From positions 1 through 64,000 of the forward strand of contig KV918980.1 of NCBI GenBank assembly GCA_002049455.2: DNA of 64,000 nucleotides, read 5' to 3'. Below, one piece after another: positions 32,881 to 49,943 of the stretch. Position numbers and translations under genes: made by a program. This stretch comes from Porphyra umbilicalis. Taxonomy: Eukaryota > Rhodophyta > Bangiophyceae > Bangiales > Bangiaceae. Each line of letters begins with the position of its first letter. Positions within the stretch are counted from its first letter, which is position 1. A model generated the notes under the pieces. That model saw only the letters and a program-made list of their open reading frames with translations. It ran no database searches and was not told the DNA's origin.

Positions 32881-34636
32881 TCCAATGACAGAGCTGCGGT
32901 CCAATCACGGCTGCTTCATATACAGAAATCTGCGTCGAACGGCAGTTCCGCTCACAAAGAACAACAGGCTCCTTTTGGGACGGTTGTGGTCGGAACGTGA
33001 GCGTGTGCGAGATATTCTGGAATATTTCGCACACCAACACGCGTGGCGAGGCCGTTAGACGTGGCGCCTTACGATAGACGTCTCATTTTCCTTGCATTAG
33101 AACATTTTATTGCTGTCTTCCCAATTCTGGCCGATGTGTTCAAGGTCAAGAAGGGGTCTGGGTCAACTGCCCATTGGTCAATCGACTTTATCCGGCTGAA
33201 TGGATGGCTGAGACGCTGTTTCACATTGTTGATCACCCCTCTCGACATCGACGGGATCGGCGAAAATTGGGAAGACAGCAATAAGGCGCCTCTGCAGCGC
33301 GCTTGACCTCTTTGAGATCTCCCTGTCGCCGTCGTTTTCATCGCTCTGTGCCCACTTCCTCCTTCGTGCTTGTCCGAGTAGAAAAAAATGACCATTTTTG
33401 CGACTTTACACAGGAGCGAGAAAATAGCTTCGACTTTGGCAACCGACGAGTGGGTTACTCTCAGACCTTGGCGGTTGCACCAACGCCCGCAGCCCTGGGC
33501 GGGAAGCACATCCCGCCGTGGGTGGCGGCTCAGATCCCGCTCTGTTCCTTGGCGACCGTCATCTGCAACTGGCTTTGGAGGACGCCCGCTGCCGTGTTCC
33601 TTCTTCCTGGTTGACGTGTTCGTGAGCACGGTGGTGCCCGCTCACCCCCGCCGCCGGCACACGCAACACTGCAGATGGTGGCGCCCGGTAGCGCGCCCTG
33701 CGGCACCGCGCCACTGGCACCTGTTGCTGGCGATTGCGAGCTGCAGCGAGGCCAAGCCGCTGGACCGCTGCTCACCCCCGTCGGCACGACTCCTCACCTG
33801 CTCGATACGTGTGCTGCAACGGGTGGACTACCAGCGCCTTGGGGTATCCCCTCCCGTGTGCCTGCCGCCCAATGGGGTGGCTCCCACTGCGGCTATGCTC
33901 TGTTTGCTCCTTCTTCCGTGCTAGCTTCTGCCCGTTGGGCACGGTCTTCCGCCAGCGACTGCGGCCTACTGATAAATGGGGGCGTCGCTATTACCGTCGG
34001 GCTCCCGCGGCGTGGTAAGGCCGGAGCGCGAACCGTCCCACTGTTCTCCTCTCGCGTGCTCCCCCCACAGTCGGTGCCGGCGACCCCGCCCCTGCGGTTA
34101 ACTACCTCTCGAGCTGCCTCGTCGGTGCCGCGCGTTGGAGATGCTCGGTGGACCGCGGCGACTGTTGCGGAGCCTACCCAGGGTGCTGCTTCTGATGCAA
34201 GCGTGTATTGTCCTCATCCCCCGGCTGACGAGGCTTCCACGATTGACCCTCAGTCGGTCGAGGGTCCAGCGGGGTCCAATGGATACACCGCAGCGATGGT
34301 GGACGTCTCCGACAACCGCGGCGGCACTTGTGCGCAACAAGAATAGACCTGGAGCACCGGTAGACATGGTCTGACGCTGCACCCGCGCGGTGGGCCTTGC
34401 AGAGCGGCGGATCCCCCACCCGCTCAATCGGCGGCGTGCGCCCCCGCCTCTGTCACACCCCCTGCCCCGCGATGTCCGTGGAAAATGCAAGAGAGCCCCA
34501 TTTGTGCATAGAGAGACGGTGTAGCCACGGCCGCCACCACGCCGCTTGGCCACACCCAGTTAAGCCGGCTTTTATGGGTCTGCGCATTACATCTGCCCAA
34601 TGAAAAGGAAAGCTGAAACGTGCTAAATAAAACATA
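32881..34636. other. Moderate-GC region, no gene recognised
   Basis: Starts with two CCAAT boxes (near 32881 and 32902) and a TATATAC-like element (about 32917). Short frames at 33303-33614 and 33675-34346 are both in one register, separated by a single TGA, and a plausible 59-nt intron (GTAAGG to CCCCACAG, 34014-34072) lies in the latter. No domain is recognisable, so an unrecognised spliced gene or an old transposon remnant are both possible. Confidence 0.25.
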
Positions 34637-34768
34637 CAGCCGTTCTCCCAAAAATCCCGAACTCCAACTGTTGCAAAAGATTTCCAAATAGGCCTCTACG
34701 ACCCCACAGAGGCCGATTTGAAACACTTTTGGAACAGTTGCAGTGCGGGATTTTTGGGAGAACGGCTG
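34637..34768. mobile_element. 132-bp palindromic MITE, copy 1 (TA target site)
   Basis: Begins CAGCCGTTCTCCCAAAAATCCC and ends with the near-exact inverse GGGATTTTTGGGAGAACGGCTG; the whole element folds back on itself. Flanked by TA on both sides (34635-34636 and 34769-34770), as for Tc1/mariner-type elements. A second 132-bp copy is at 56101-56232. Confidence 0.85.
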
Positions 34769-34770
34769 TA

Positions 34771-36467
34771 AGTGGTCGAGAGAGATTAAACCTCTGACAC
34801 AGACCGTAAACGACGAATTGGGGACGCGTCCCCGTTTCTGCCTCTCTGACCCCTGTGAGAGGGCTGGGCTGCACAGCTGACGCTGTGCTTCTGTTTCACG
34901 GCCCAGTGTGGGCATGCCTGTACGTCGACTGTACATCCTCCTCCTCAAACGGTATGGGCGCGCGGTATGGCCGCAAGTTCTTCGGACGCCCTCCGATATG
35001 CACAGCAAGCTACCGCTTGGTCCCCGGCCGGCGGGTGGTGGCGCCGCGTGGTTGTTGCCGGGAAGCTTCAGACGAGCATTGGGCGACACCGATAAAAGGG
35101 AGCGCTCCGGAGCCGCCACGTTGTTTTTGATGGCAAATCTATCACAGAATCGCAAAATGTTATCTTTCAATCTGACCGAATCGATGTCAGCCAATGGAAT
35201 GTCAGAACTCTTGATGTCGACCAATGGATTCCAGGCACGTGCGTGCAATACCCTGACCTTCAAGGCGAAGGCGTGCTCGGCGACGCATCGACACTGGGCA
35301 CGCTGGCCGGCTTCACAGCCGCGAGCGCGCACGGGGGCACGTACAGCCACGCTGCCGTGGCGAGGGGAAAGTGGGGCGGGGAAAGGGGTGCCGCCGCCGC
35401 CACCGCAGCGGCGGCGGCCCGCCGGCGTCGCACGACGCCCCCGGGCGGGGCCGTCACTCCGCCGCGCAGCGCACCTACGCACGGCGGGCGGGGCGGCCGA
35501 CACGGCGCACAAGCGGGGGGGTGGGATCGACTGCCGCGCGACGAGGCGCCTCTAACCGCGCCGCTAGACGGCGTCAGAAACTGCCGACGAGTCGCTGCAA
35601 CAGAAGCCGGCGCGCAGGCGCGATCACCCGCGGGTCATCGTGGGCGCGTCGAACCCCGGAAGTTGCTGTGCGCGGTCGCCGCGCGCAACTCGGGGCGGTG
35701 GGGGGGGGCAGAGGGGCAGGCGCCGTCCGGGCCCAGTGACCCTTGTGGCAGGACAGTCCCTCTCAGCCACATAGCTATATTCGCTTGTAGCGTCATCGCG
35801 ACCCTTCCAACGCTGACACGCCCTCAGATCCCTGAGGATAGGCTTGGGACGAGCGCCCGGGGCACTATTGAGGAGCGTTGTTAAGGCGCTGTTAAGGCAC
35901 TGGTAGGGCGCTGTAAACGCCCCGCGCCCCTCGACGCCGAGGCGTGGATAGGGCGCGCGTAGAGCACGGATACTTCCACAATATCACGTTCATGATTGCC
36001 TGGTGCCCAGCACGCAGCTCCGGGTGATGGAGGTGGGAGTGAAACGCCCTGTCAAGGGGCCACAGCCTCTGCCCTACGGAGCAAGCCGGAGTCAAAAACC
36101 GGCATACTCCTATCGAGAACTATGCCAGTTTCCTAAAGTTTGGGACGCACCACAGGGCCCGCCCGGGTACCCAAGTATTCCGGAAAAAACTGGCATCAGT
36201 GAGACAATGACCGGTGTCTCAGACCTCCTCACGACGATAAACCGGCATACCTGGTCTCATGACGACCGCAGAAGCGAGGGAATGCGGCAGAGCTCTGTCA
36301 AGTTCATCCATTCATTTCACCACCGACCAATAGATATGGAGAGCGTTGTTGCATCCAAACCACAGGCTGGTGCACAGCCCGGGACAGGATCTCACATTGT
36401 ACTGATCCGTGAATATTCAACGTAATCATTCACCATTTTCGGCAGTCATGGCTTACTGCTGACCTCC
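34771..36467. other. Intergenic region with duplicated block and small repeats
   Basis: No gene recognised. It contains the dispersed repeat 35160-35780 (see its own entry), repeated GGGCGCTGT motifs near 35885-35970 that recur near 55020-55110, and several short palindromes built on CCGGCATA and TATGCCGG-like words (36095-36245), also seen near 54630-54660. Confidence 0.35.
35160..35780 (+). repeat. Dispersed repeat, copy 1 (partner 62500-63130)
   Basis: Shares long runs with 62500-63130 in the same orientation, for example TTCCAGGCACGTG, GGCGACGCATCGACAC, GGGGCACGTACAGCCACG, GCGCGATCACCCGCGGGTCATC and GTGGCAGGACAGTCC. Both copies lie a few kb downstream of an Asn-rich gene, so this is probably the right end of the same ancient segmental duplication. 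Confidence 0.75.
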
Positions 36468-36929: not shown

Positions 36930-38517
36930 CGGACGCGGCCGTCTACCGGGCAATGCCTAACGACGCACGCATGATGAGGCGCAACAACCGCAAGGCGGGC
37001 ACATGGCCAGAACTTGACGCCGTCGTATACGGCTGATACCTGGCTATTTACGCCCTCGGTCACCGCCGAATCCCCAAAACCACTGCGCTGCTTCAAGAAG
37101 GCGCAACAATGATTGCAGGTCGCCTCAACATCACGCAGTTTTCAGCCAGCCACGGTTGGGTCCGGGTCTTCCTCAAAAGATTTGATACATGCAATGTGAC
37201 GATGCACGAGCAGGCGGGGGAGGCGAACTTGGCGTTGGCCGCCACTACCATGAAGAATATCCGGCGCAAGCTGGAGGACTACCCCCCCGACCGAATATAC
37301 AGCATGGATGAGACCGGGCTGCTGTACCGGTGTCTGCCCTCGCGTTCCTGTGTGCCACGGCGGGACCGGCCACACGCGCGCGGGACAAGGGCCACGCGTC
37401 ACATGGACCGCGTCACCCTGGTGCTCTGTACGAACGCGACAAGCACCCACAAGCTCCTGGTGGCGATGATCGGCGAGCCCGTCAACCCGCTGTGCTTCCG
37501 CGGCGAGGGCAACGAGTGCCCGCTGCCCTACCTCAACCCAGAGAAGGCGTGGATGGACAAATACGTGTACGCAAAATGGTGCAATACGGTCTTCCTATCT
37601 GCGGGACGGGACCGCCACAGGGACGCCAAATGTGCTTTGATTATGGACAACTCATCTACATACGACTCTGCGCTAAGTGCTGACGATGTGAAATTTTGGT
37701 TCCTTCCCCCAAACGTTACGGCCATCTACCAGCCGATGGACGCCCGGGTGATCGCGGCTCTCAAGCGGCGCTACAAGTGACGCTTTTTGGCTGTCCTCGT
37801 GCGGTGGTCTTCGTTGTCGTCGCAGTTGCAGACCCACCCTAGCCCCCCTGACCCCCCCCTTGCAATGCCCGCAACTCCGCCCACCCCCCCACCGGCTGAC
37901 CCCCCGCCGCCGCCCCCGCCGCCGGCTCCTTGCCGGTTCCGCGCCGGGAATGATGTGTCATGGGTGCACCCGACGACCGAAGTGCCACAGAAGTATGGAG
38001 CCCCGCGGATGGCGGGGCTGGAGGTCATGGACGACAATGCGGACGCTGCGGCGCAGACGGAGCTGTTGATCGCCCTCCTCCCCCCGCCGGACCAAGGGCC
38101 CCGCCCGCGGAGAAACTGTGGACTGACGGGGTGCGGCCAGGCCCACCTCATGGACGCCGCGACGTTTATTTTTGAGGAGTGGGAGCAGGTACCGCGAGAG
38201 TTGATTGTGCATTGCTGGGTGAAGTCGACTATTTTCCTGCGTCTATGGATGAGTCAGTCGTGTCGTTACACGCTGAGTATAGACAGGGATTTGCCAGTGT
38301 GGAGGGGTATGTGGATGAGATACTTCCTCTGTTGAGGGGAAAATCTCTTTGACGGGAGGTGGTGGGTGGTGAGAGCGAACATGACGCGCGCGAGGGTATG
38401 CGTGCTTGGCTGGCTGCGGAGGATGAGAAGGAAGCCATCGTGGACACTGCTGATTTGATTGTCTTTCCTCCTGACGAGGCCTCAGGGGACGAGGATGAGC
38501 CCTCTGGTGATGACTAA
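36930..38517 (+). pseudogene. Decayed pogo/Tigger-type DDE transposase
   Basis: Order of features fits Tigger/pogo transposases: an N-terminal HTH region (GTWPELDAVV, ALGHRRIP), a CENP-B-like second HTH (SASHGWVRVFLKRF), then the DDE domain with YSMDETGLLYR, VLCTNATSTHKLL, LIMDNSSTYD (second Asp) and LPPNVTAIYQPMDARV (third Asp), then FIFEEWEQVPRELIVHCWVKS and an acidic tail ending near 38517. The frame is broken by TGA at 37034-37036, TGA at 37778-37780 and a shift near 38230. A Pro-rich insertion at ~37850-37930 is unusual. Terminal repeats were not identified with certainty. It is presumably inactive. Confidence 0.8.
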
Positions 38518-39723
38518 TAAACTAAGTCATTGTATTCAATTGTCTGACACAGGTAGTCGCGACGACGCCTCGGGCGGGACGCGCCGGTGTAGGCAACGAA
38601 CGACAGTGACGACGCTGTTAAAGTGGCAACTCGGGCTGGGCCTGTCGTGACATGTGGTTGGCCGAGTTGGTGGGTGTTGACACTAGGACGGAACACGTTG
38701 TTGCGTTTGGTTGGATGCGGAAGAACCCTGGTGGGTAATGTCACTCGGGCGGCGCTCGCGGTTTCGTGTCAGCTGACGGGGGTGGAGGTAGATGGCAGTG
38801 GAAAAAGAACCAACACGAGCAGCATCCATGGTTTCGCTGAGGCGTGGGTTGAGCCAGAAGCGGGTCACGCCTCGGGCGGGGCTCAATACTTTGCTGGATG
38901 GGTGGGTTGGATGCGAAGCGGGTCGCGCCTCGGGCGGGACTCGCCTCGTTGGGTGGGCGGTGCTAGCGGGGAAGGGTGTTTCGCCTCGGGCGTCGCAGCG
39001 CTTCTTGTGGGGGGGGTGGACGGTGTTGGTACGGGGAGGAAGACAGTAGCAGGGAGTCGCTGGCTGCCTATAAGGTGAAGACACATGTAAATGCGTACAG
39101 GGAAAGGGGCGCAAGGTACATGTGGCAACAACAGAAAATGCAGCACTACAGGAGCCAGAAGCGACTCTGCTTACCCCCCCTGCTTCACACCAGCCCACCC
39201 ATTGACCTTGGTGCACGTCACCGCTACGTCTCAAGGCCAACCTTCTTTACAGAAGCTATCCTCACTCAGCCGCCGACGAACAGCCCCGCCTCCCACCCCC
39301 GTCCCCCCCCCCTCTCCCACCCCACCCACCTTGCGCCGCTACCGACCGCGATAGAAAGTACAGAGGCGCATGCTCAAGCCTTACTTGTACCCTAGAGAGA
39401 GAGGCAGGCTGTAGACACCCACACACATGCATGCATGCACACAGTCATACAGGTACAGGTAAAAGGATCGAGCCATCAGGGACAACAGGGGTCGGCATCG
39501 TGTTCGTGCAGCTTATCCACCACCATCTGTCCACCACCTCGCCCCCCCAGTATCGCTCCACGAGCTCCTAGAAACCAGAACAGAGACACGCACCAGCGTG
39601 CAGGTGTACTCGTACGAGCGCAAAATAATGTAGAGCACAAGAGCCATACAGATAAGAGAAAGCGAGTGTGGGAGCCGTGCAGGAAAGGGTGATCGCTGGC
39701 GGGCGGGGGTGAGGGGTGGCGGG
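38518..39723. other. Intergenic region left of the LTR element
   Basis: No gene recognised. The word GCCTCGGGCGGG (or a one-base variant) recurs about five times between 38565 and 38990, partly as GCGGGTCxCGCCTCGGGCGGG units. Short CA and ATGC microsatellites lie near 39415-39445. Confidence 0.4.
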
Positions 39724-40090
39724 TGTGGCAACAAAGAAGGCGCGAACAAATACCCTAGAACCACACTGACAGTACAAAAGAGAAGGACCTAAAGGGTCAA
39801 CCTACCGAGAGGACCTAGACGGCGCAAAGGCGCTCAAAGGCTAGGACTCGAGAGGGACGCCAAGATTTAGATGGCGAGCAAGACGGGGCGGCGCGGGGCA
39901 AGGCCGGCGCCGTAATAACAAGACGAAAACAGACGAAAAAGAGAGACGTAAGAGTAGCCCCTGGCCCGAATAGGGGGGGCTACTTAGGGAGGGACAGCCG
40001 TCCCACAGGCCGCATTCCGAAGTACGGAGAGACGGGCGCAAGTCCCGGCAGGGGCATAAGTACTGGACTTAGCCCCTGCCGAATGCAACA
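39724..40090 (-). repeat. 3' LTR (left end)
   Basis: 367 bp, TGTGGCAACA at one end and GAATGCAACA at the other on the plus strand. Preceded on the element's sense strand by the purine tract at 40091-40098. Confidence 0.95.
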
Positions 40091-40098
40091 CCCCCCTC
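40091..40098 (-). other. Polypurine tract
   Basis: GAGGGGGG on the minus strand abutting the 3' LTR, the expected plus-strand priming site for reverse transcription. Confidence 0.6.
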
Positions 40099-40156
40099 GG
40101 GCCAAGACCTGGCGGTCACCCGCCAGCAAGGACGGATGCGGGGACGCTCGGGGGTC

Positions 40157-40553
40157 GCCAGCGCGAGGGCGCAGGGCGGGGCCACCAGGCGACGCGGGTC
40201 GCGTGGAAGCGCGCGCGCGGGCAGCACGCGGCGGCGAGCGGCGCCAGCGCGCAGGCGCAGGGCGGGGCCACCAGGCGACGCGGGTCGCGTGAGGGCGCGC
40301 GCGCGGGCCGCGCGCGGCGGCGAGCGGCGCCAGCGCGGGCATACCGCCGTGCGGGGGCCGGCGGGGGCAGCGTTGAAGAACGCGGGGCGCCGGCGACGGG
40401 GGGCGGCACGCGCGGACGCCATCGGCGTGGGCGTGCTGCGGGTGTGCCGCTCGGGCAGACGTTGTCGCCGACGGAGGCGGACGACGCGGTCGGCGGCGGC
40501 GGAGGCGGCACGCGCGGACGCCATCGGCGTGGGCGTGCTGCCGACTTGGTCGG
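40157..40553 (+). repeat. Tandem repeats upstream of the antisense ORF
   Basis: An ~86-bp unit containing GGGCGGGGCCACCAGGCGAC occurs at about 40171 and 40257, and a 36-bp unit containing GCGGCACGCGCGGACGCC at about 40404 and 40505 (offset 101). These GC-rich repeats sit between the LTR and the plus-strand ORF and may be its promoter or leader. Confidence 0.6.
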
Positions 40554-42959
40554 ATGGCGGCGACCGGGGAAGCGGCGGCGATGGCCTACATCGCGCCGTC
40601 CTTGCGGGACGCATTGAGGGCGGGGCTGCGGCGGTACGCCGAGTGCGTATTGGCGGAGCACGACGAGGTGCCGGAGCGGGAGCGGGTGCCGGGGCCAGAC
40701 CCGCGGAACCAGCCGGCGGTCGAGCGCATGCAGCCCGGCGTACGCATGGCGTACTGGCACGGCGGCATCCACGAGGTGCACTCGCAGCGGTGCGATGGCG
40801 AGTTGGCCGTCCGCTTCAGCCGCGAGGTGGCGCGCTTCGGGACGGCGTTGCCGTCGTGGTTCGTCCGGACGGCGTACGCCTTCGTGAGGGAGCACGAGAA
40901 CGAGACTGTCCTCCGCGATTGGGTGCCGTGGGTGGCGCACTGCTGGGGCCGTCTGATGAGCCTCATGCCGGACGCGGTGACCCCACCGGCGGAGTACCTG
41001 ACGGAGTTGTCGCTTCCGTATCTACGGACGTCGGCGGACCTCGGGTACGTGCAAGCCGCCGAGGCGCAGCACCGGGAGGCGATGGACGCGGCGGCGTACT
41101 ACTACGAAGAGGCGGCGGACAAGAACGCCCGTCGTGTGGACGCGGGGGCGGCGCCACGGGCGGTCCTGCCGTACGAGTGCCCGGCCATCAGCTCCTGGCC
41201 GAAACCCGAGCGGGTTGGGCGCGATCTGACGCTCCTTTTGGCGGAGGGCGACCGCGTGGCGGTAAACCAAGTGCGGAAGGAGGTGGACGTTCGGGCGCGC
41301 AAGGGCGACGACGTCCCGTACCTGATGACGGCGGGCCACCATGCCAAGGGCTTGAACCGAGCCGGCTGGCGGCGCGTGCCGGAGGCGCTGGGCGAGTTGG
41401 AGCTGCCGCGGGGGCTGCACGTGGCGTACCCCACCGTGCTGTCGTCTTATTACGACCGCATGATGGGGGACGACCGCAGCTGCTTGTGGGACATGTACGT
41501 GGTGGAGCGCGTGCAGCTCACCGCCATCGCGATGCTGGCGGACCTCGCCGGCGGGCGGGTCCACCGCATCTCTTCAGCCCTTCTCCACCGGCTGGAGCGT
41601 CTCCGGCTGGACGACATGGCGGCGGGGAGTGCGGACGAGCACGCCCGGCTGCAGCGGCTGCTCCAAGGCATGGCGGTGCTGCTCCCCAAATGGGGAGACG
41701 TGGTGGCGGCTGCGGGTTTGCCGCTCGGGCAGACGCCGTTGCCGGCGGAGGCGGACGACGCGGCGAACCCATACGGGTTTCGACTAGCGTTGGATGCTAG
41801 GGGCGTCAACTTCCCAAGTCGGGCCGAGCGCGCGGCGTCGCAGAGCTCCACGGCGCGGGGGCCGCCGGGGGCGTCCGGGAACGTGGGAGCGGGGCCCACC
41901 CGGGGCGCGGACAGCGACGCGGCCCGGGAGGACGCGGCGGCGGCAGGCTCGGGATCGCCGTCATGGCGGGCCGTGTCGCCGTCGCGGTCGTCGAAGAGGG
42001 GGCGTGCCCGGGACGACGCCCAGTGGGTGCCTTCGCGGTCCCCGTCGCGGTCGTCGCCGAGGGGGCGGGCCCGGGACGACGCCCAGTGGGTGCCGTCGCG
42101 GTCCCCGTCGGCGTCGGCGTCGACAACGCGGACACGGTCGCCCGTTCGGGGGTCGTCGCGTCGGGCGACGGGGTCGCGCCGGACACCGCCGCCGGGACGC
42201 GGCACGCCTCGCCCTCGGCGCGGGCCGACGCCGGGACGGGCAACGCCGCCGCCGGCGGCGTCGCAACGGAGTGGCGCGGCGGGGGAAGCCGCGGGAGGTA
42301 GCCGGCGGTCGTGGTCACCGCCAGCGGCGTCGACGCGCCGGCGGAAGCCGCCGGCGCCCGCTGGAGCGTCAGGGCGGGCGGACGGCGGCACGGCGGCGCC
42401 CCGACCGGGCGACGCGCGGCGCGGCCGGTCGCCGGTCGGCGCCGATGGGGCGGCCCGGTCGACGGCGGGGGCAACCGGGTCGCGGCGGAGCGGGGGGACC
42501 ACGCGGGGGAAACGCCCGAGGTCGTCCGAGGGGCAGGAGGTGGAGCCCCCCTACGCGGCGCACCACAAGTGGTACCGCGTGGGGTCCATTGCGCCTGAGG
42601 GCGACGCGCTCCGGGCGCACCTTTCGGCGGCGGCCGTGAAGCGCTTGGCCGCGGCGGGCGGCGCGCCGGCTGGCGCCGTGGGGCTGGCGATCAGCCGGGT
42701 GCTGCGTAGTGGCGTGGACCGGCTGCACGCGTCCCTGCGGACGTCCAGCGATCGCACGATGGGGGAGGCGATGGACGGCGTCGTCAAGGTCGTCAAAGAA
42801 CTCCGCCGCGCGTCGCACCTGGAGGACGACATTGGTCGTATCCTGGACGAAGTGCGGGCGGCGGACCGCGTGGCCTCTGCTGACGAGCGGTTCGTCTATG
42901 ACGACAGCGACGAGTCGGGGGGTGAGCGTCCCACGGGTCCTCGGCAGCGGCACCGCTAA
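40554..42959 (+). CDS. Antisense accessory ORF of the chromovirus (RS-rich protein)
   Basis: An uninterrupted 801-residue frame on the strand opposite gag-pol, between pol and the 3' LTR. Residues 1-~410 are globular-looking and mixed-charge (AYIAPSLRDALRAGLRRYAE, YYYEEAADKNARR, SYYDRMMGDDRSCLWDMYVV); ~430-640 are Ser/Arg/Pro-rich with tandem RGRARDDAQWVPSRSPS units; the C-terminal ~120 residues look helical and acidic. I recognise no family, and no zinc knuckle or catalytic motif. Its TAA overlaps the TAG of pol within CTAA (42956-42959), so the two are tail to tail. Additional antisense ORFs are known in some plant LTR elements, but their proteins differ. An alternative start is the ATG near 40581. 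It could be a host-derived or regulatory protein; function unknown. Confidence 0.65.
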   Translation: MAATGEAAAMAYIAPSLRDALRAGLRRYAECVLAEHDEVPERERVPGPDPRNQPAVERMQPGVRMAYWHGGIHEVHSQRCDGELAVRFSREVARFGTALPSWFVRTAYAFVREHENETVLRDWVPWVAHCWGRLMSLMPDAVTPPAEYLTELSLPYLRTSADLGYVQAAEAQHREAMDAAAYYYEEAADKNARRVDAGAAPRAVLPYECPAISSWPKPERVGRDLTLLLAEGDRVAVNQVRKEVDVRARKGDDVPYLMTAGHHAKGLNRAGWRRVPEALGELELPRGLHVAYPTVLSSYYDRMMGDDRSCLWDMYVVERVQLTAIAMLADLAGGRVHRISSALLHRLERLRLDDMAAGSADEHARLQRLLQGMAVLLPKWGDVVAAAGLPLGQTPLPAEADDAANPYGFRLALDARGVNFPSRAERAASQSSTARGPPGASGNVGAGPTRGADSDAAREDAAAAGSGSPSWRAVSPSRSSKRGRARDDAQWVPSRSPSRSSPRGRARDDAQWVPSRSPSASASTTRTRSPVRGSSRRATGSRRTPPPGRGTPRPRRGPTPGRATPPPAASQRSGAAGEAAGGSRRSWSPPAASTRRRKPPAPAGASGRADGGTAAPRPGDARRGRSPVGADGAARSTAGATGSRRSGGTTRGKRPRSSEGQEVEPPYAAHHKWYRVGSIAPEGDALRAHLSAAAVKRLAAAGGAPAGAVGLAISRVLRSGVDRLHASLRTSSDRTMGEAMDGVVKVVKELRRASHLEDDIGRILDEVRAADRVASADERFVYDDSDESGGERPTGPRQRHR

Positions 42960-45900
42960 GCGGTGGCGCACGCGTTGACCCGTGTGGTGTGGGCCTTCTC
43001 AAAGCGGAAGATCACGACGCGCCACACGGGCGGCGGGGAGGAGGCGGTGCGGCCTGCCACCGTGAACGTAGGATAGGGGGGGTTGAGTTTCACCCGAGCG
43101 GCGCAGTAGCGCGTCGCTAGCGTCCACCAGGCCTGGTGTTGCCAGCGCGGGGCGACGAGGGTGATGTCACACGGATAGGAGGTGATGCGGGCGAGGACCT
43201 GCGGTAGGAAAGAAAAGGGGGGGTTGGCCCACCCGTTTTCGACCGCCCAGTCGACCGAGAACGCCGCGGCGCAGCCGCGCGCGGCGTCCGCGGGGGACAG
43301 GGGCAGGAACCGGGGCAGATGGGTGGCCGCGGCGGTGGTAAACAGGTCGACCGTATGGGGGCCCCAGACCGCGTCGAGTTTCTCGAAGGCGGGGCGGCCC
43401 AATGCCCAGTGGGCAGCCGGCGGGTTGTCGGGAAACGCCGCGAGGAGGGAGGATGCCCAAAGGGCAGGGACGGTCTCCTCGTGGCTTTTCGCCGGGGACG
43501 CCCAGCGCACATCGACGAGCATGGCACCCGTCTCGTCGGTGTGCTGCTGGACCGCGACGCAGACCCACTGGGGTTGCCGCGGGGGCGGGGCGAGGACGAC
43601 CGGCGTCGTCGGGAAGGCGTCGTCGGGGAGCGTAAACTTCTTCTGCTTCGCTAAGCGGATGACGAGATGTTTCGGTAAACCCGAAATGGGTTCCCACGAA
43701 TCATCGCCCCGGCCATAAGTGGCCCACCGAACTTTCGCCACGATGCCGTTATCGGTGTCGTGGCGAATAGCCAACAGCCGGTCGATTTCCCAGGTCGGAT
43801 CCTCATCGGAGGAATTCACGTCGGGGAGCGGGGTCTGTGTAAGCCGATGCGGCTGGGCATCCGGTCCCGGCACCGGGCGCGGTGCCGGTGTGACGTCGTT
43901 ACTGTTGACCCGTCCTTCGCCATCGCCTTGGTCGATTACGAAGTAGGTGCCGTCCGTATCGAGAATCTCGAACGGGCCAAGGGCCTTGGGCAGCAGCTTG
44001 TGCCCCCCGCGGTGGGAGCGGAGGTAGACGAAGTCACCGACCACCAGGTCCTTGTTCTTCGGCCGTACCCGGCTGTCCCAGTCTCGCTTATAGCGAGCTT
44101 GGTACTTGTCAAGGGAAGCGCGCACCGTCGGGATGAGCTTTTTCAAGCCCTGGATGATGGCGCGTTTCACCATGAGCGGGGAGCCATCGGCGGATGCCAG
44201 CGGGGACGAGCCAGCGAGGCCCTCAACCGTGAGGTTGGGCATACGGCGGGGGATCAGGAGGTCGAACGGCGCCATACCGGTGGCCCTATGCGGGCAGGTG
44301 TTGTACGCCAGGCTCAGGGCGGGGAGGAGGCGATCCCACTGGCGAGGGTGCTCCTCACAGAAGGCCCGGATCTGGTTCAGCAGCGTACGGTTATACCGTT
44401 CCACCTGACCGTTGGTCTGCGGATGGTAGGGCGTCGTGTATTTGCACCTCGTGCCCAACATCTTCATGACGGCGCGGAAGAACGCGTTGTCCATCTGTCG
44501 ACCCTGGTCCGATAGGACGCAGTCGGGGGGCCCATAGGCCGCGACCCATACGGACAGGAACGCCGACGCGACCGTGACGGCGGTGATACGTCGGAGCGCA
44601 ACCGTACGGGTTAGCTTCGAGAAGCGGTCGGACATGACGATCACATACCGGTTGCCGTCAACCGTGTTGAGCAGCGGTCCGAGGATGTCAATGCCAACCT
44701 CGGTCAACGGTTCCTTTGGCGGGAACAGGGTCATGGGGGACGTATGTCGTCGCTCCTGCAGCCGGTTCTTCGCGCACGGCGGGCACTGCCGGACGAAGTC
44801 GTACAGGTCGACAATCATCGACTCCCAATAGAAGCAACGCTTCATGGCGGCGTACATCCGCTGCACCCCAGGGTGACCTTTGGTCGTCGGGTAGTGCTCG
44901 AGGCCCATCACGCGGGAGCGTAGGGCCTCGGGGATGTATACTTGCATAACGTCCGTCGTTGGTTGACGGCGCACGAGGCGGCCTTCCTCATCGAGGACGA
45001 ACCGCGTCGGCTTGCCCGAGTCGATCACGGCGCGTAGCTGCTGGCATCGGCCGTCCGCGCCTTGTGCGCGAAGGAGCTCCTCCGCTGTGAGAGGGGGAGG
45101 CGGTAACGGCGCCGAGAAGTTGTTGGCGTCCGTGCCCCTTGCGGCCTGAGCTAGAAGGAAGCATGGGATGTCGTCGTCCAGCTCCTTCTTGTCCAGACCC
45201 GTCGTGGGTACGCGGGACAGGGCATCGGGGAGGTGGTGGTTCGCTCCCTTCTTGTACTTCACCTCGAAGTCGAACTCCGCTAAGCGGAGGCGCCAACGGA
45301 GCAGACGACCGGTGGCCGTAGTCAGCCGGTAGATCCAACTGAGGCATTCGTGGTCGGTACGCACCGTGAACCGCGAGCCCTCCACATAGTGTCGGAGGTG
45401 GAGCACGGCCCAGACGAGGCCCAGGCACTCCTTCTCGGTGGCCGAATAGTTGCGTTGCTCGGGCTGCAGGGCGCGGCTGTAGAACCGGTTTGAGCTGGCC
45501 GTCCTGCTGCTCTTGGAGCAGGGCGCACCCCAATTGGGTGTCGCACGCATCGACGTCAATGGTGAAGGGCGCTCCGCGGCGGGGGAGCGCCAGGACCGGC
45601 GGATGAAGCAGCGCGTCGCGTAGGCGCGTGAACGCTGCGGCTTGTGTCTCGGTGAACGTCGGGAGCGTGTCGCCGTACGCCTTGGTTGTCAGCTGGTTTA
45701 GGGGCGCTGCGATCCGTGCGTAGTTCGCGACGAAGCGGCGGTACACGTTACACATGCCGAGGAAGCTACGCAATTGCGTCTTTGTTCGCGGGTGACCTAC
45801 CTTCGCGAGCGCCTCCAGGTTCTTGTTGTGCACCCGCATCTCCCCAGGGGATATGATGTGCCCGAGGTACTCGACGGACGTCTGGAAGAACTGGCACTTC

Positions 45901-47714
45901 TTGGCTTTCAACGTGACGCCGGCCCGACCCAAGCGGGTCAGGGCTTCGTCGAGCGCTTTCACGTGGTTCTCCGGGGTGTCGGAGAAGACGATGACATCCT
46001 CGAGGTAGACAAGGCACGTTTGCCAGGTCATCCCGGACAGGATGATGTCGAGGGCACGTTGGAAGGTCGCAGGAGCGTTGGTGAGGCCGAAGGCCATCTT
46101 CAGGTACTCGTACGTGCCCATGTGGCAGGTGAAAGCGGTCTTGTCGATGTCGTCTAGGGCCATGGGTATCTGCCAATACCCGGCATTGCAGTCGAGCGTT
46201 GAGAAGACGCGGGCGTCTCCCAGCGAGTCGATGCAATCCTCCATCCGCGGGATGGGATAGGAGTCCTTCTTGGTCACCGCATTGAGACGACGGTAGTCGA
46301 CGCAAAAGCGTGGCGACCCGTCTTTCTTGGGGACGACAACGACAGGGCTGGCCCATTCACTGGTACTTGGTCGGACGACCTTGGCTTCCAGCATCCGATT
46401 GACCTCGTCACGGATCATGTCACGGGCATGGTGACCCGCGCGGTACGGTTGCTGCCGTATCGGCTTCGTCCCGGGCTGGACCTCCACGCGGTGGACGGTG
46501 GCGTCGATGGAGCCGAGCGTCCCGTCCAGCATATACGCATGGCGGCGGATGAGTGCCTGGACATCCGGGAGTAGCCGGTCGGGTACGCCAGAGAGATCGA
46601 CTTGGTCTAGCACCGCTTCTGCGGTCGCGGTGGGCGATGCCGCGTCGTCAGTGACGAGCAGGCAGTCGACATCGTCGACCGGGCTGACGGTAGCGAGGAT
46701 AGTTCCCTTGCGGAGGCAGACCGGTTTGTCGCTGAGGTTAGCGACTTCAACGCTGAAGCGTTGCCCCGGGACAACGACGGCCAACCCACGCGCCGTTTGA
46801 CAGCGGTGATGCTTGTGAAGGCGGTTGTACGGCGCGACTAGGACCTGACCAGCGAGGTCGGCGGTGACCAGCAGGGCCGTCCGGGTTTGCGGGGGCAGCA
46901 CCCGTCGTTGCGCGAGGTGCACCGTCGCATCCTTCGGGGATCGGCGGCGTTCTTTCTTGCCGCGTGCCGTGCACGATAAGATGGGCACCGAAGCATCGGT
47001 GGACCATCTGACGCGTTGACGGCGTGGGTAGAGCGCCTCGACGTGGCGGTTGATGAAACTGGTGCCGAGCAGCACAGGGACGGCGAGGCGTGGGACGACG
47101 ACAAAGTCGACGTCCGTGGCGAAGCCACCGGAGCGCAGGCGTAGGGTGATCATGCCTCGGGCGGAGATAGGGTTTTTCTTTGCGTCCACAATGTGGGGCA
47201 AATGAGGGCGTCGATGCAACCGCCGCTCCCAACCCTTGGGCAGGGCGTCCACCCGAATGATCGAGGGCCCGGCGCCTGTATCCAGGGTCGGTGTCATCAG
47301 CCGCATGCGAGCCTCGTCAAAGCCGAGGGCCGCGGGGATGGTATACTGCCGGTATACCGGAGCCAAGACACGGTGTATCCGTATCTTTGGACCCTGCGGG
47401 CTGGGGGCGCCACGGGGCGGCCGAGCCGCTAGCGGCACGCCCCGTGTTAGTTTCCCGGCCCGGCAGGGGCAGGTGGGTCCACCGCTTGGACTCGGATCCG
47501 GTTGCGGATCCCTGGGCGAGGCGCCGACCGTCTCGTCTCCGCTGAGGGAGCCGGTGTCGTCCGGCACCAGCGGATCACCCCAGGGGTCCCCGGCGATGGC
47601 GGCCATCGCGTATTGCATACGACTCGGGCGTAAGGCAGGACGGGCCGCGCCAGGGGGCCCGGGGCGACCGCAGGCGGTGCACCTGTCCCCATCGCCCGGT
47701 CGAGCGAAGGACAT
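42956..47714 (-). CDS. pol: Chromovirus Pol: protease, RT, RNase H, integrase, chromodomain, Dam-like tail
   Basis: ATG at 47714 is proposed; it overlaps gag in another register. Protease LDTGAGPSI (Asp codon in 47272-47283). RT: WASPVVVVPKKDGSPRF, DYRRLNAVT, STLDCNAGYWQI, then VYLEDVIVF where the family has YLDD (Glu codon 45999-46001), YLGHIIS and RRFVANY. RNase H: IDVDACDTQLGCALL, then a one-base frame change near 45485 and FYSRALQPEQRNYSATEKE, RTDHECLSWI. Integrase: HH-CC zinc region, GIDILGPL, LSDQGRQ, HPQTNGQVERYN (D, D, E present). Chromodomain WEIDRLLAIR and GDDSWEP (~43640-43790). The last ~200 residues hold VDLFTTAAATHLPRF, NPPFSFLPQVL and LVAPRW, like the Dam/methylase-like domain of DIRS elements. 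Frameshift and YLED suggest an inactive copy. Confidence 0.88.
43020..43420 (-). other. DIRS/Dam-like C-terminal domain of Pol
   Basis: Downstream of the chromodomain. The order VDLF-x-x-LPRF, a DAF-like SVDW segment, NPPF, then LVAPRW-x-x-x-WW resembles the domain that follows RNase H in DIRS-type retroelements and phage N6-adenine methyltransferase-like folds (NPPF as motif IV). The comparison is from memory; methyltransferase activity is not established. Confidence 0.5.
45483..45492 (-). other. Frame change in pol RNase H
   Basis: Up to CAGCTCAAACCG the RNase H reads in one register; from TTCTACAGCCGCGCC it matches in another. One T appears to be missing. Either a true inactivating deletion or a base-calling error. 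Confidence 0.7.
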
Positions 47715-49330
47715 ACGCGGGCGTAGTGACCGAAACCGCGGCAGCGGTGGCACTGCACCTGGCTCAGGTGGACCAGAGCCGGCCGTCCCGCCGGGCCGCC
47801 CGGTCGGGGAGACCATTGGGTTGCCGTTCTGGCCGACGGCGTCCGGGCCGCCGGTGGCGTAGGGTTGAATGCCTGGAACGGCTGCTGCGGTAGAGGCCGA
47901 CCTATGGGGTTCCGGCTCTGTGGCGGCGTGGCCTCCGACGTCGTCGCTGGTGGCGCCGCCCAGAGGACCGGTTCGGCTTTTGCTCCGCTCCCGGCGCCCA
48001 GCTGCAGGACGCTCTTGGCCTTGGCGTACCGGTCGGCTTTGCCGGTGGTGACCTTGACCGAGCGGAGCCCATCGCCGATCTTCTGCGAAAGCGCCACGAG
48101 TTCGTCGAAGGTGGCGCATGTGCGGTCGGCCAGCTCGGCTTGGGCACGTACCGAGGGGTGGAGCCCTTTCAGGAACAGGTACCGTAGCTGCCCCGGGTCG
48201 TACATACCCATGAGCTGTCGGCCGAGCCTCATCAACCGCTGATAGAAAGCGCGTTCGCCTTCGTCTTGGCGCTGCTCCGCGGTGCGGAGGGCCATTTCGG
48301 CGGTGTGCGGGGCGTCTTCGGGTGCATAACGGGTCAACAGATAGTTGATCGTGTGCGGGAAACTGGTACCGACGGCGCTGCCGTGTGGGCCATTTGTTTC
48401 CTGGACGAAGTCGTCCTTGGCCTCACCGCCAATGCGGTAGGCGAGGAGGTACGGGGCCTCGCCCAGAGTGACATCCATTTCGTCCGCGGCTGTGCGGAAG
48501 CGAGTGAGGAGCGCCAGGACGGCCAGCGGATCCGAGCCATCGAAGAGCGTGACGCCGTGGAACGGACCGTCCAGCAGGCGATGGCGCCTGCGGAGTTGGC
48601 TTGCTTGCGACCGGCCATACGTCGGATCCGCATTGCGGACGAGGTAGCGGCGGAAGTCGAGCAGCGACGAGAACGGGCCATGCTTGGACGTCAAGGGGAG
48701 CGGCCAGGGGATGACCGCCATTGGCGTCGAAGCTGTCCGACCGGTGACCCGCGTGCGGGTGCGGCGCCGCGAGCGAACGCGGTGGCGCGCGGGGCCGGTG
48801 CTGTCACTGCTGCTGCTGCTGCTGGGGTCTCGGGGCGGCTTGTCGTCATCGGCAGACCGCGAAGAGCGGGCGTCGGGATCCGATCGTACGCCCGCGCTCC
48901 GCGAGGCCAACGGCGACGTTGAGGCAGCGGACCTGCGCGACCGGGGCCGGTCGCGCGGGGCCGGGGTGTTTGCCGGTGTTGGGTCAGTGGGCCGGGGTCC
49001 ACTGGCGGTCGACATCGGCAACGTCCCAGTTGGGTCGCGCAACGTTGTCACGTCGGCGCGTAGCTCTCGGACGGACGCGGCCAACGTACGCACGATCGTC
49101 GTTAACTCGGCGACCGCCGATTGCTCCGCGCGACGACTAGTATCGCCGGGGGAAGCGCCCGAGCCGCCCGAAGCGGGAGCCGCTGCGGTTGGATCGGGGA
49201 GACCAGAGGCATCGTGGGGAAGAGGGGGAGTCGTAGTCGCAGGGGCTGACCCGTCGGCCGTACGCCGAGCGTCAGCGCCCGTATCATGAGGGGGGGCAAA
49301 GCGCGGGGGATCGGCACCCCCGCTCGCCAT
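47447..49330 (-). CDS. gag: Chromovirus Gag (capsid and CCHC nucleocapsid)
   Basis: 627 residues from the ATG at 49330 to TAA at 47447. A disordered Ala/Pro start and short coiled-coil (VAELTTIVRTLAASVRELRADV) are followed by an Arg/Ser-rich segment. A Retrotrans_gag-type capsid follows (FDGSDPLAVLALLTRF, DDFVQE, NYLLTRYAPED, ERAFYQRLMRLGRQL, QLRYLFLKGLHPSVR). One zinc knuckle CHRCRGFGHYARVC sits near residue 555. The C-terminus overlaps the Pol frame by about 270 nt in another register, so Pol would need frameshifting or reinitiation. The frame is intact. Confidence 0.92.
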   Translation of the reverse strand: MASGGADPPRFAPPHDTGADARRTADGSAPATTTPPLPHDASGLPDPTAAAPASGGSGASPGDTSRRAEQSAVAELTTIVRTLAASVRELRADVTTLRDPTGTLPMSTASGPRPTDPTPANTPAPRDRPRSRRSAASTSPLASRSAGVRSDPDARSSRSADDDKPPRDPSSSSSSDSTGPARHRVRSRRRTRTRVTGRTASTPMAVIPWPLPLTSKHGPFSSLLDFRRYLVRNADPTYGRSQASQLRRRHRLLDGPFHGVTLFDGSDPLAVLALLTRFRTAADEMDVTLGEAPYLLAYRIGGEAKDDFVQETNGPHGSAVGTSFPHTINYLLTRYAPEDAPHTAEMALRTAEQRQDEGERAFYQRLMRLGRQLMGMYDPGQLRYLFLKGLHPSVRAQAELADRTCATFDELVALSQKIGDGLRSVKVTTGKADRYAKAKSVLQLGAGSGAKAEPVLWAAPPATTSEATPPQSRNPIGRPLPQQPFQAFNPTPPAARTPSARTATQWSPRPGGPAGRPALVHLSQVQCHRCRGFGHYARVCPSLDRAMGTGAPPAVAPGPLARPVLPYARVVCNTRWPPSPGTPGVIRWCRTTPAPSAETRRSAPRPGIRNRIRVQAVDPPAPAGPGN

Positions 49331-49551
49331 CGGAGATAGGTTGGCTTCTTGTCTCGAGATAGCACAAACCCGGACACGACGGCACCACGGCCCGTCGGGC
49401 ACCGTCGAGCGACTCCCCCGGCCTGCAACAACAGCCGCCGGGTGACCGGGACCACGAAGTGGTCACGTCACGTGAACCGTCAGGGGCGTCCGCACCGTTG
49501 TCGCCGGGGCTCGCGAGAGGAGAGGCGTCCCTCGAAAGGGACGACGCCCTC

Positions 49552-49571: not shown

Positions 49572-49938
49572 TGTGGAAACAAAGAAGGCGCGAACAAATA
49601 CCCTAGAACCACACTGACAGTACAAAAGAGAAGGACCTAAAGGGTCAACCTACCGAGAGGACCTAGACGGCGCAAAGGCGCTCAAAGGCTAGGACTCGAG
49701 AGGGACGCCAAGATTTAGATGGCGAGCAAGACGGGGCGGCGCGGGGCAAGGCCGGCGCCGTAATAACAAGACGAAAACAGACGAAAAAGAGAGACGTAAG
49801 AGTAGCCCCTGGCCCGAATAGGGGGGGCTACTTAGGGAGGGACAGCCGTCCCACAGGCCGCATTCCGAAGTACGGAGAGACGGGCGCAAGTCCCGGCAGG
49901 GGCATAAGTACTGGATTTAGCCCCTGCCGAATGCAACA
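49572..49938 (-). repeat. 5' LTR (right end)
   Basis: 367 bp, two differences from the other LTR. Followed on the right by GCGGG, the same five bases that precede the left LTR. Confidence 0.95.
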
Positions 49939-49943
49939 GCGGG

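What the first reader, a model, noticed from the sequence alone, without database searches (positions are those of the whole stretch)
40554..42959. Chromovirus carrying an 801-codon antisense ORF tail-to-tail with pol
Seen: a 2.4-kb uninterrupted plus-strand frame sits inside an otherwise standard minus-strand Ty3/gypsy element, with its own repeat-bearing leader, and its stop codon overlaps the pol stop in CTAA. The product has a globular half, an RS-repeat region and a helical tail, with no known domain. Known: extra antisense ORFs occur in a few plant LTR elements. Inference: an accessory or regulatory protein, possibly RNA-binding or splicing-linked because of the RS repeats. This is the strongest candidate for an undescribed system in the window.
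Basis: partly seen in the sequence, partly recalled or inferred. Interest (0 to 1): 0.85.

Follow-up and report, generated by a model that had tools for sequence, protein, structure and literature searches.

The report
Conserved antisense gene in retrotransposon family
A retrotransposon family in this genome carries, backwards relative to its other genes, an 801-codon gene that natural selection has kept as a protein-coding gene, and a related backwards gene occurs in a larger sister family; what the protein does is not known.

Summary
In detail: 40554-42959 (+) is an 801-codon frame, tail-to-tail with minus-strand pol (CTAA overlap), in a 10.2-kb chromodomain-bearing Ty3/gypsy element with 367-bp LTRs. 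Length alone is weak evidence in GC-rich DNA (4 of 1000 Markov sequences reach it). Selection decides: across 36 copies dN/dS is 0.52 (pol 0.40). Widely shared variants have N/S at 0.32 of a context-matched expectation (0 of 1000 simulations), while singletons are near neutral (0.91), as in pol. The clean shared indels keep frame. In 39 of 40 pol-tail rows an ORF piece lies beside the tail. One divergent element (integrase 79%) and a sister clade (integrase about 52%) have an antisense ORF at the same place. In the sister clade only the middle block is shown to be homologous (hhalign P 2e-5), with dN/dS 0.18-0.29 in three open copies. No known domain was found. [quoted passage not shown] this is a different protein of that class in chromodomain elements. 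Best guess: a nuclear, nucleic-acid-binding accessory protein. Transcription and function are untested; the host lineage was not established.

The parts
39724..40090 (-). 3' LTR of the element (367 bp)
   Evidence: 2 mismatches of 367 to the 5' LTR; TSD GCGGG at 39719-39723 and 49939-49943
49572..49938 (-). 5' LTR of the element (367 bp)
40091..40553 (+). leader between the 3' LTR and the antisense ORF; polypurine run of the minus strand at 40091-40096; 86-bp tandem repeat 40156-40337; about 82% GC
40554..42959 (+). antisense ORF (aORF), 801 aa, the subject of the finding
   Evidence: purifying selection
41424..41795 (+). aORF middle block (aa 291-414), homologous to the sister-family antisense ORF; aa 314-423 conserved in the C460 element
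41829..42473 (+). RS/P-rich basic linker (aa 426-640, pI 12), with a 63-nt tandem repeat and the shared frame-keeping indels
42483..42899 (+). aORF C-terminal block (aa 644-782), 44.6% identical in the C460 element; holds the basic motif KRPR, kept in C460
42956..42959 (.). CTAA overlap of the two stop codons
42956..45559 (-). pol, 3' part: RNase H, integrase, chromodomain-like segment, Dam-like tail (867 aa open frame)
43667..43792 (-). chromodomain-like segment (Pfam Chromo E 0.0014, below cut-off here; above cut-off in the sister element)
43115..43411 (-). Dam/methyltransferase-like pol tail (weak Pfam hit, below cut-off)
   Evidence: relatives in tyrosine-recombinase elements
44988..48119 (-). 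pol, 5' part: protease-like, reverse transcriptase, start of RNase H; in this copy separated from the 3' part by a private 5-nt deletion
47447..49402 (-). gag-like frame with a CCHC-like knuckle (all Pfam hits below cut-off)

Best explanation
It is an antisense accessory gene (of the 'aORF-3R' kind) of a chromodomain-bearing Ty3/gypsy element. Shown: it is protein-coding by its substitution pattern, was kept by purifying selection while the family spread, evolves together with pol, and has counterparts at the same place in a divergent element (C460) and, homologous at least in the middle block, in a larger sister family. Inferred: an antisense transcript starting in the 3' LTR or the repeat-bearing leader makes a basic protein that enters the nucleus (KRPR motif, RS-rich linker) and binds nucleic acid, acting in trans to help the element, most likely by regulating its expression or countering its silencing. 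Mechanistic part about 0.4 likely; coding and selected part about 0.95.
For: dN/dS 0.523 over 36 copies and 0.465 over 9 copies with an open frame (one, L037, cut by a contig end), against 0.404 for pol over 27 copies; other five frames 0.61-1.34. Context-matched test with the window as background: variants with minor count >=5, 46 N/57 S against 73.9/29.3 expected (ratio 0.32, 0 of 1000); counts 2-4 ratio 0.66 (0 of 1000); singletons 0.91 (61 of 1000); pol 0.22, 0.39, 0.86 (0, 0 and 20 of 1000). Clean shared indels of 75, 63 and 6 nt are multiples of 3. ORF and pol distances agree, Mantel r 0.95, 27 copies, 0 of 2000. 39 of 40 pol-tail rows have an aORF piece abutting (within 22 nt). C460 element: middle block 40.5% over 110 aa, C block 44.6% over 139, about as conserved as the pol tail, 44% over 158. 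Sister clade: hhalign P 1e-4 and 2e-5 for the middle block, dN/dS 0.18-0.29 in three copies, and 54 of 116 scored rows in an open frame of >=700 codons with no stop in the match.
Against: No transcript, peptide or localisation data. No domain match and no usable fold. The ORF region is more variable than pol (mean distance 0.046 against 0.033) and its constraint weaker. The wobble-matched minus-strand frame also shows reduced N/S (0.39), although it has 7-8 stops, most of them shared, in the six intact copies examined. Four copies (L034, L038, L040, L044) have many small, partly shared linker indels in an ambiguous alignment that are not single multiples of 3 (their listed linker lengths sum to +9, +30, +30, +18 by my addition). 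The N-terminal half and the C block do not reach significance against the sister protein (P 0.23, 0.12; 128 of 1000 shuffles reach the local score over aa 1-430, 21 of 1000 for aa 56-170). The two extra sister copies were picked from rows without stops.
Confidence: 0.78

Rival explanations
1. The open frame is a by-product of GC-rich composition (a spurious ORF), with no coding role.
For: In Markov sequences of this composition the longest open frame averages 415 codons and reaches 801 in 4 of 1000. A 554-aa frame in another phase overlaps the ORF, and minus-strand frames of 180-350 aa exist.
Against: Frame-specific purifying selection in shared variants with near-neutral singletons, frame-keeping shared indels, and protein-level conservation with the C460 element and the sister family.
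Confidence: 0.03
2. The real gene is on the minus strand (an env-like sense ORF after pol), and the plus frame is its wobble-matched shadow.
For: The wobble-matched minus frame has N/S ratio 0.39 for widely shared variants and contains a 350-aa open stretch, 41450-42502.
Against: That frame has 7-8 stops in the six intact copies examined, most of them shared, while the plus frame has only its terminal stop. The N/S ratio is lower in the plus frame (0.32 against 0.39; 0.66 against 0.76). In the sister block the antisense frame is open in the three copies read (two of them picked for having no stop), its wobble-matched partner has 3-6 stops, and omega is 0.18-0.29 against 0.29-0.51.
Confidence: 0.03
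3. What matters is the antisense RNA (for example dsRNA feeding self-silencing or copy control), and the protein is secondary.
For: Antisense transcription of LTR elements can make siRNA (discussed in PMC7264820). Nothing here excludes an RNA role in addition.
Against: RNA function alone does not predict codon-level constraint or amino-acid conservation of 40-45% between diverged elements.
Confidence: 0.1
4. A transduced host gene or another mobile element's enzyme (such as a tyrosine recombinase of a DIRS-like element) sitting backwards in the element.
For: The pol tail is related to the tail of tyrosine-recombinase elements, so exchange between element types is plausible. Antisense recombinase genes in some DIRS-like elements are recalled from memory, not tested.
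Against: No Phage_integrase or other Pfam hit in the aORF. Profile comparison of the aORF N part with two local tyrosine recombinases gives P 0.18. No match outside such elements was recognised, but not every row was checked for a neighbouring pol; three of the eight weak rows were fetched and are not homologues.
Confidence: 0.06

Closest known systems
Maize Grande gene23 / rice RIRE2 antisense ORF (aORF-3R class; PMC7264820, parts 1 and 2 of 3 of the text read)
   Same: ORF between pol and 3' LTR, antisense to gag-pol, in most copies, conserved at protein level; gene23 is reported there as nuclear with its own promoter.
   Different: No sequence comparison with gene23 or RIRE2 was made here; this element has a chromodomain and a Dam-like pol tail; transcription and localisation are untested.
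Retand lineage antisense ORFs with Transposase_28/TRP28 (PMC11963269: abstract, Discussion and part 1 of 2 of section 11 read)
   Different: Retand is described there as non-chromovirus and found in eudicots and Liliopsida only; 97% of clusters have TRP28. The window ORF has no Pfam hit at E <= 1, the sister ORFs and the C460 piece none at E <= 0.5.
HTLV-1 antisense gene HBZ (recalled; antisense HTLV genes are mentioned in the papers read)
   Same: Works-like analogy only: an antisense regulatory protein made from the 3' side of a retroelement.
   Different: No sequence relation tested; that HBZ is a bZIP protein is recalled, and no bZIP domain was found here.
ParB/methyltransferase accessory gene on the opposite strand of Sola1-1 in Ectocarpus (PMC12477816, passages only)
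   Same: Accessory gene on the opposite strand of a transposon in an alga, thought to act on chromatin.
   Different: DNA transposon; known domains; no domain match here.

Membership tests
aORF-3R class (antisense ORF between pol and 3' LTR) | ORF lies between pol and 3' LTR, antisense to gag-pol | tested here: met
aORF-3R class (antisense ORF between pol and 3' LTR) | present in all or most copies of the family | tested here: met
   39 of 40 pol-tail rows abut an aORF piece (40 of 43 candidates scored); intact in 8 of 29 full-coverage copies
aORF-3R class (antisense ORF between pol and 3' LTR) | protein conservation comparable with gag-pol | tested here: met
   omega 0.52 against 0.40 for pol; 40.5-44.6% against 44% for the pol tail in C460, but far below the integrase (79%)
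aORF-3R class (antisense ORF between pol and 3' LTR) | antisense transcription from its own promoter; nuclear protein | not testable with these tools
   no RNA or localisation data
Retand TRP28 antisense protein | Transposase_28 domain PF04195 | tested here: not met
   no Pfam hit at E <= 1 for the window ORF, none at E <= 0.5 for the sister ORFs and the C460 piece
Chromovirus (chromodomain Ty3/gypsy) | chromodomain C-terminal to integrase | tested here: met
   window pol: Chromo E 0.0014, 19.0 bits, below the 25.1 cut-off, so met only weakly in the window itself; sister pol: E 1.3e-6, 28.6 bits, above it
Chromovirus (chromodomain Ty3/gypsy) | RT phylogeny inside the chromovirus clade | not tested
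   no reference RT set was used
SR splicing factor | RRM plus RS domain | tested here: not met
   RS-rich run present but no RRM or other Pfam hit
env-like third ORF | same sense as gag-pol | tested here: not met
   antisense

The most novel reading that the evidence does not exclude
An old, undescribed antisense protein family, present in well over a hundred copies in two chromodomain Ty3/gypsy groups of one small genome, acts in trans on the element's own chromatin or RNA (an anti-silencing or copy-control protein), its leader tandem repeats perhaps being its binding sites. It would make antisense accessory genes a shared strategy of chromodomain elements rather than a peculiarity of angiosperm Retand/Grande elements.
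Probability: 0.25. Interest if true: 0.75.

Novelty: new variant of a known kind. Interest (0 to 1): 0.55.

Why it matters
Antisense ORFs between pol and the 3' LTR have been described since the 1990s without known function, mostly from flowering plants in the two papers read here. In this genome the codon-level signal is clean: widely shared variants are constrained while singletons are near neutral, beside a pol control, and an antisense gene sits at the same place in two element groups about half identical in integrase. That points to an antisense gene that the elements themselves keep, in a small genome with many open copies, so its transcript and protein could be looked for directly.

Tried and rejected
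Structure: AlphaFold2 on the N part (17 sequences) and C part (29 sequences) gave mean pLDDT 36 and 47, so no fold search was run. Domain searches: Pfam, PHROGs and PDB sequences gave nothing usable for the aORF (sister and C460 Pfam only); the only PDB line was E 0.18 to a chlorophyll a-b binding protein. Outside the genome: the N part (aa 1-425) gave no match in phage records at E 0.01 and no confirmed relative in viral contigs (221 pattern matches, none confirmed); plasmids and prokaryote genomes were not searched. Weak genome hits: of the eight weak rows (C35, C203, C474, C26, C94, C253, C54, C18) only C94, C474 and C203 were fetched; none is a homologue (L049 looks like a piggyBac-type transposase and L050 like a copia RT by eye, no family search). 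Recombinase origin: no profile match. Length as evidence: rejected as weak. Window aORF against the sister protein: HMM search not significant; local alignment over aa 1-430 not significant (128 of 1000 shuffles); the global alignment (3 of 500) and the middle-block profiles are. Rows dropped before counts: ORF dN/dS used 36 of 39 copies (L043 and L046 by hand for insertions, L045 for coverage). Pol used 27 of 39: L021, L029, L032, L033, L043, L046 dropped by hand for indels or insertions, L035 and L044 for short coverage, L036, L037, L039, L040 without a pol match. Literature: the listings showed no title or abstract start on this ORF; the library holds open-licence papers only.

Full report
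OBSERVATION. The frame 40554-42959 (+) is real: ATG to TAA, 801 codons, no internal stop. Its stop shares CTAA (42956-42959) with the stop of minus-strand pol. [quoted passage not shown] Pfam finds reverse transcriptase, RNase H, integrase zinc finger and core, a sub-threshold chromodomain (E 0.0014) and a weak Dam-like tail in pol. This copy's pol is broken by a private 5-nt deletion; all 28 copies aligned that cover the place differ from it (27 by a clean 5 nt, L021 less cleanly).

IS IT MORE THAN CHANCE? By length alone, only modestly. GC content is 0.74 in the ORF, and first-order Markov sequences of the region reach 801 open codons in 4 of 1000. The substitution pattern settles it. The DNA search listed 58 matches, some of them pieces or short leader repeats (60 candidates, 40 scored), and 38 loci holding the ORF and, where present, the pol end were fetched. 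With 36 of these 39 copies (window included; L043, L045 and L046 dropped) dN/dS in the ORF frame is 0.523, or 0.465 for the 9 copies with an open frame (L037 is cut by a contig end). In the five other frames it is 0.61, 0.93, 1.06, 1.21 and 1.34. The pol part, 27 copies, gives 0.404.

Splitting variants by how many copies share them separates selection in active elements from decay after insertion. With the window as the only background and substitutions re-dealt among sites of the same trinucleotide (1000 simulations), the ORF shows N/S at 0.32 of expectation for variants with minor count 5 or more (46 N, 57 S; expected 73.9, 29.3; 0 of 1000). The ratio is 0.66 for counts 2-4 (0 of 1000) and 0.91 for singletons (61 of 1000). 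Pol shows 0.22, 0.39 and 0.86 (0, 0 and 20 of 1000). The clean shared indels are 75, 63 and 6 nt, all multiples of three, while most private ones are not. Four copies (L034, L038, L040, L044) have an ambiguous linker alignment with many small indels, some shared by L038 and L040, whose listed lengths add up to +9, +30, +30 and +18 by my addition. The one other frame with reduced N/S is the wobble-matched minus frame (0.39), as a shadow must be; it has 7-8 stops, most of them shared, in the six intact copies examined.

DECAY AND LINKAGE. Of 29 copies with full coverage (window included) 8 have an intact ORF; of 28 other copies with full coverage of the pol part 10 are open over at least 850 of 867 codons. 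Among 23 covered for both, 3 have both intact, 4 only the ORF, 5 only pol and 11 neither. ORF and pol distances correlate at 0.95 (27 copies, Mantel 0 of 2000). The 941 bases next to the ORF (the pol tail) gave 40 rows (43 candidates); 39 have an aORF C-terminal piece abutting (within 22 nt), and the 40th looks by position like a detached part of the C271 element already counted. At least five of those pieces are short or broken remnants (C328, C143, C45, C271, C35). Conversely, some ORF copies have lost the pol beside them: L036, L039 and L040 match only up to near the end of the ORF, and L037 ends with its contig. A search with the LTR was not run.

DEEPER RELATIVES. A protein search found one divergent place, C460 (L047). 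Its plus-strand frame matches aORF aa 314-791, with a further scrap (aa 296-312) in another frame; the pol tail lies opposite it, again tail to tail and overlapping its end. Identity is 40.5% over 110 aa in the middle block and 44.6% over 139 aa in the C block, against 44% over 158 aa in the pol tail and 79% in the integrase. So the aORF and the pol tail evolve at a like pace, much faster than integrase. dN/dS of window against C460 is 0.42 and 0.52 in the two blocks, with dS near or above 1 and so unreliable. The earlier part of that copy's antisense frame is not recognisable.

The integrase search also listed a large group at 50-53% identity (125 rows scored of 1448 candidates, main family included). 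One copy (L053) has a pol with a chromodomain above the Pfam cut-off. After pol it has an antisense frame of two pieces, 393 and 351 aa, separated by an in-frame stop in this copy. Searches with the two pieces show that the frame is continuous elsewhere: of 116 scored rows (473 candidates) 93 have no stop in the match and 54 lie in an open frame of 700 codons or more without a stop in the match. In ten rows that I compared by eye between (C195, C117, C30, C81, C37, C231, C452, C204, C105, second C63) integrase and antisense match lie on opposite strands with the same gap of 841 bases; the remaining rows were not checked for a neighbouring pol. Profile comparison of the window family with three sister copies aligns aa 291-414 over nearly its whole length (P 1e-4; P 2e-5 with the block alone). 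Other comparisons gave P 0.12 to 0.23; of these, searches are the N-terminal half and the C block of the same proteins, so homology beyond the middle block is not shown. A global alignment over aa 1-430 beats 497 of 500 shuffles, but the local one does not stand out. In the sister block dN/dS is 0.18, 0.22 and 0.29 for the three pairs, against 0.84-1.94 in the four frames that are not wobble-matched and 0.29-0.51 in the one that is; two of the three copies were picked from rows without stops.

WHAT IT DOES. Shown: a coding, selected, element-borne antisense gene, older than the split of these element groups as far as the middle block goes. Inferred: the basic RS-rich linker (aa 426-640, pI 12, 16 RS/SR dipeptides) and the KRPR motif kept in C460 point to the nucleus and to nucleic acid. 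[quoted passage not shown] By analogy with gene23 of Grande, reported as nuclear and transcribed from its own promoter (PMC7264820), a regulatory role on the element's RNA or chromatin is the most likely. No domain or fold supports a particular biochemical activity.

KNOWN OR NEW. PMC7264820 (parts 1 and 2 of 3 read) describes antisense ORFs between pol and the 3' LTR in Grande, RIRE2, Retand, PvRetro13 and the fungal Boty; PMC11963269 (abstract, Discussion and part 1 of 2 of section 11) describes them with tandem repeats in Retand. So the arrangement is a known kind. New here, as far as tested, are the protein (no PF04195, no other domain), the chromodomain elements that carry it, and a direct measure of selection with a pol control. 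The listings of searches of the held open-licence library showed no paper on this ORF; that does not show absence from print.

Noticed in passing
43115-43411 (-); L051, L052: The pol C-terminal tail after the chromodomain (weak Pfam Dam, E 0.01) is 38-39% identical to tails of two elements that continue into a tyrosine recombinase (Phage_integrase hits, one at and one below cut-off), i.e. DIRS-like elements; 150 rows were scored of 377 candidates, own family included. Dam domains in DIRS elements are mentioned in PMC6338049 (passages).
   Followed up: partly
37109-37780 (+): Fragment of a DDE_1 transposase (pogo/Tigger-type by recall) with a Tc5-like HTH trace, next to the element.
   Followed up: no
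near 45486 (-): Private 5-nt deletion frameshifts pol in the window copy although its antisense ORF is intact.
   Followed up: yes
40136-41800 (+): A 554-aa frame in another phase starts in the leader and overlaps the antisense ORF; over the ORF region neither other plus-strand phase shows purifying selection. Its upstream ATG would matter if the transcript starts before 40136.
   Followed up: partly
L053 3824-4012: 39-bp tandem repeat (4.8 copies) at the 5' side of the sister antisense ORF, a parallel to the 86-bp repeat in the window leader.
   Followed up: no
34632-34773: Inverted repeat with 66-nt arms, 88% complementary, 10 nt between.
   Followed up: no
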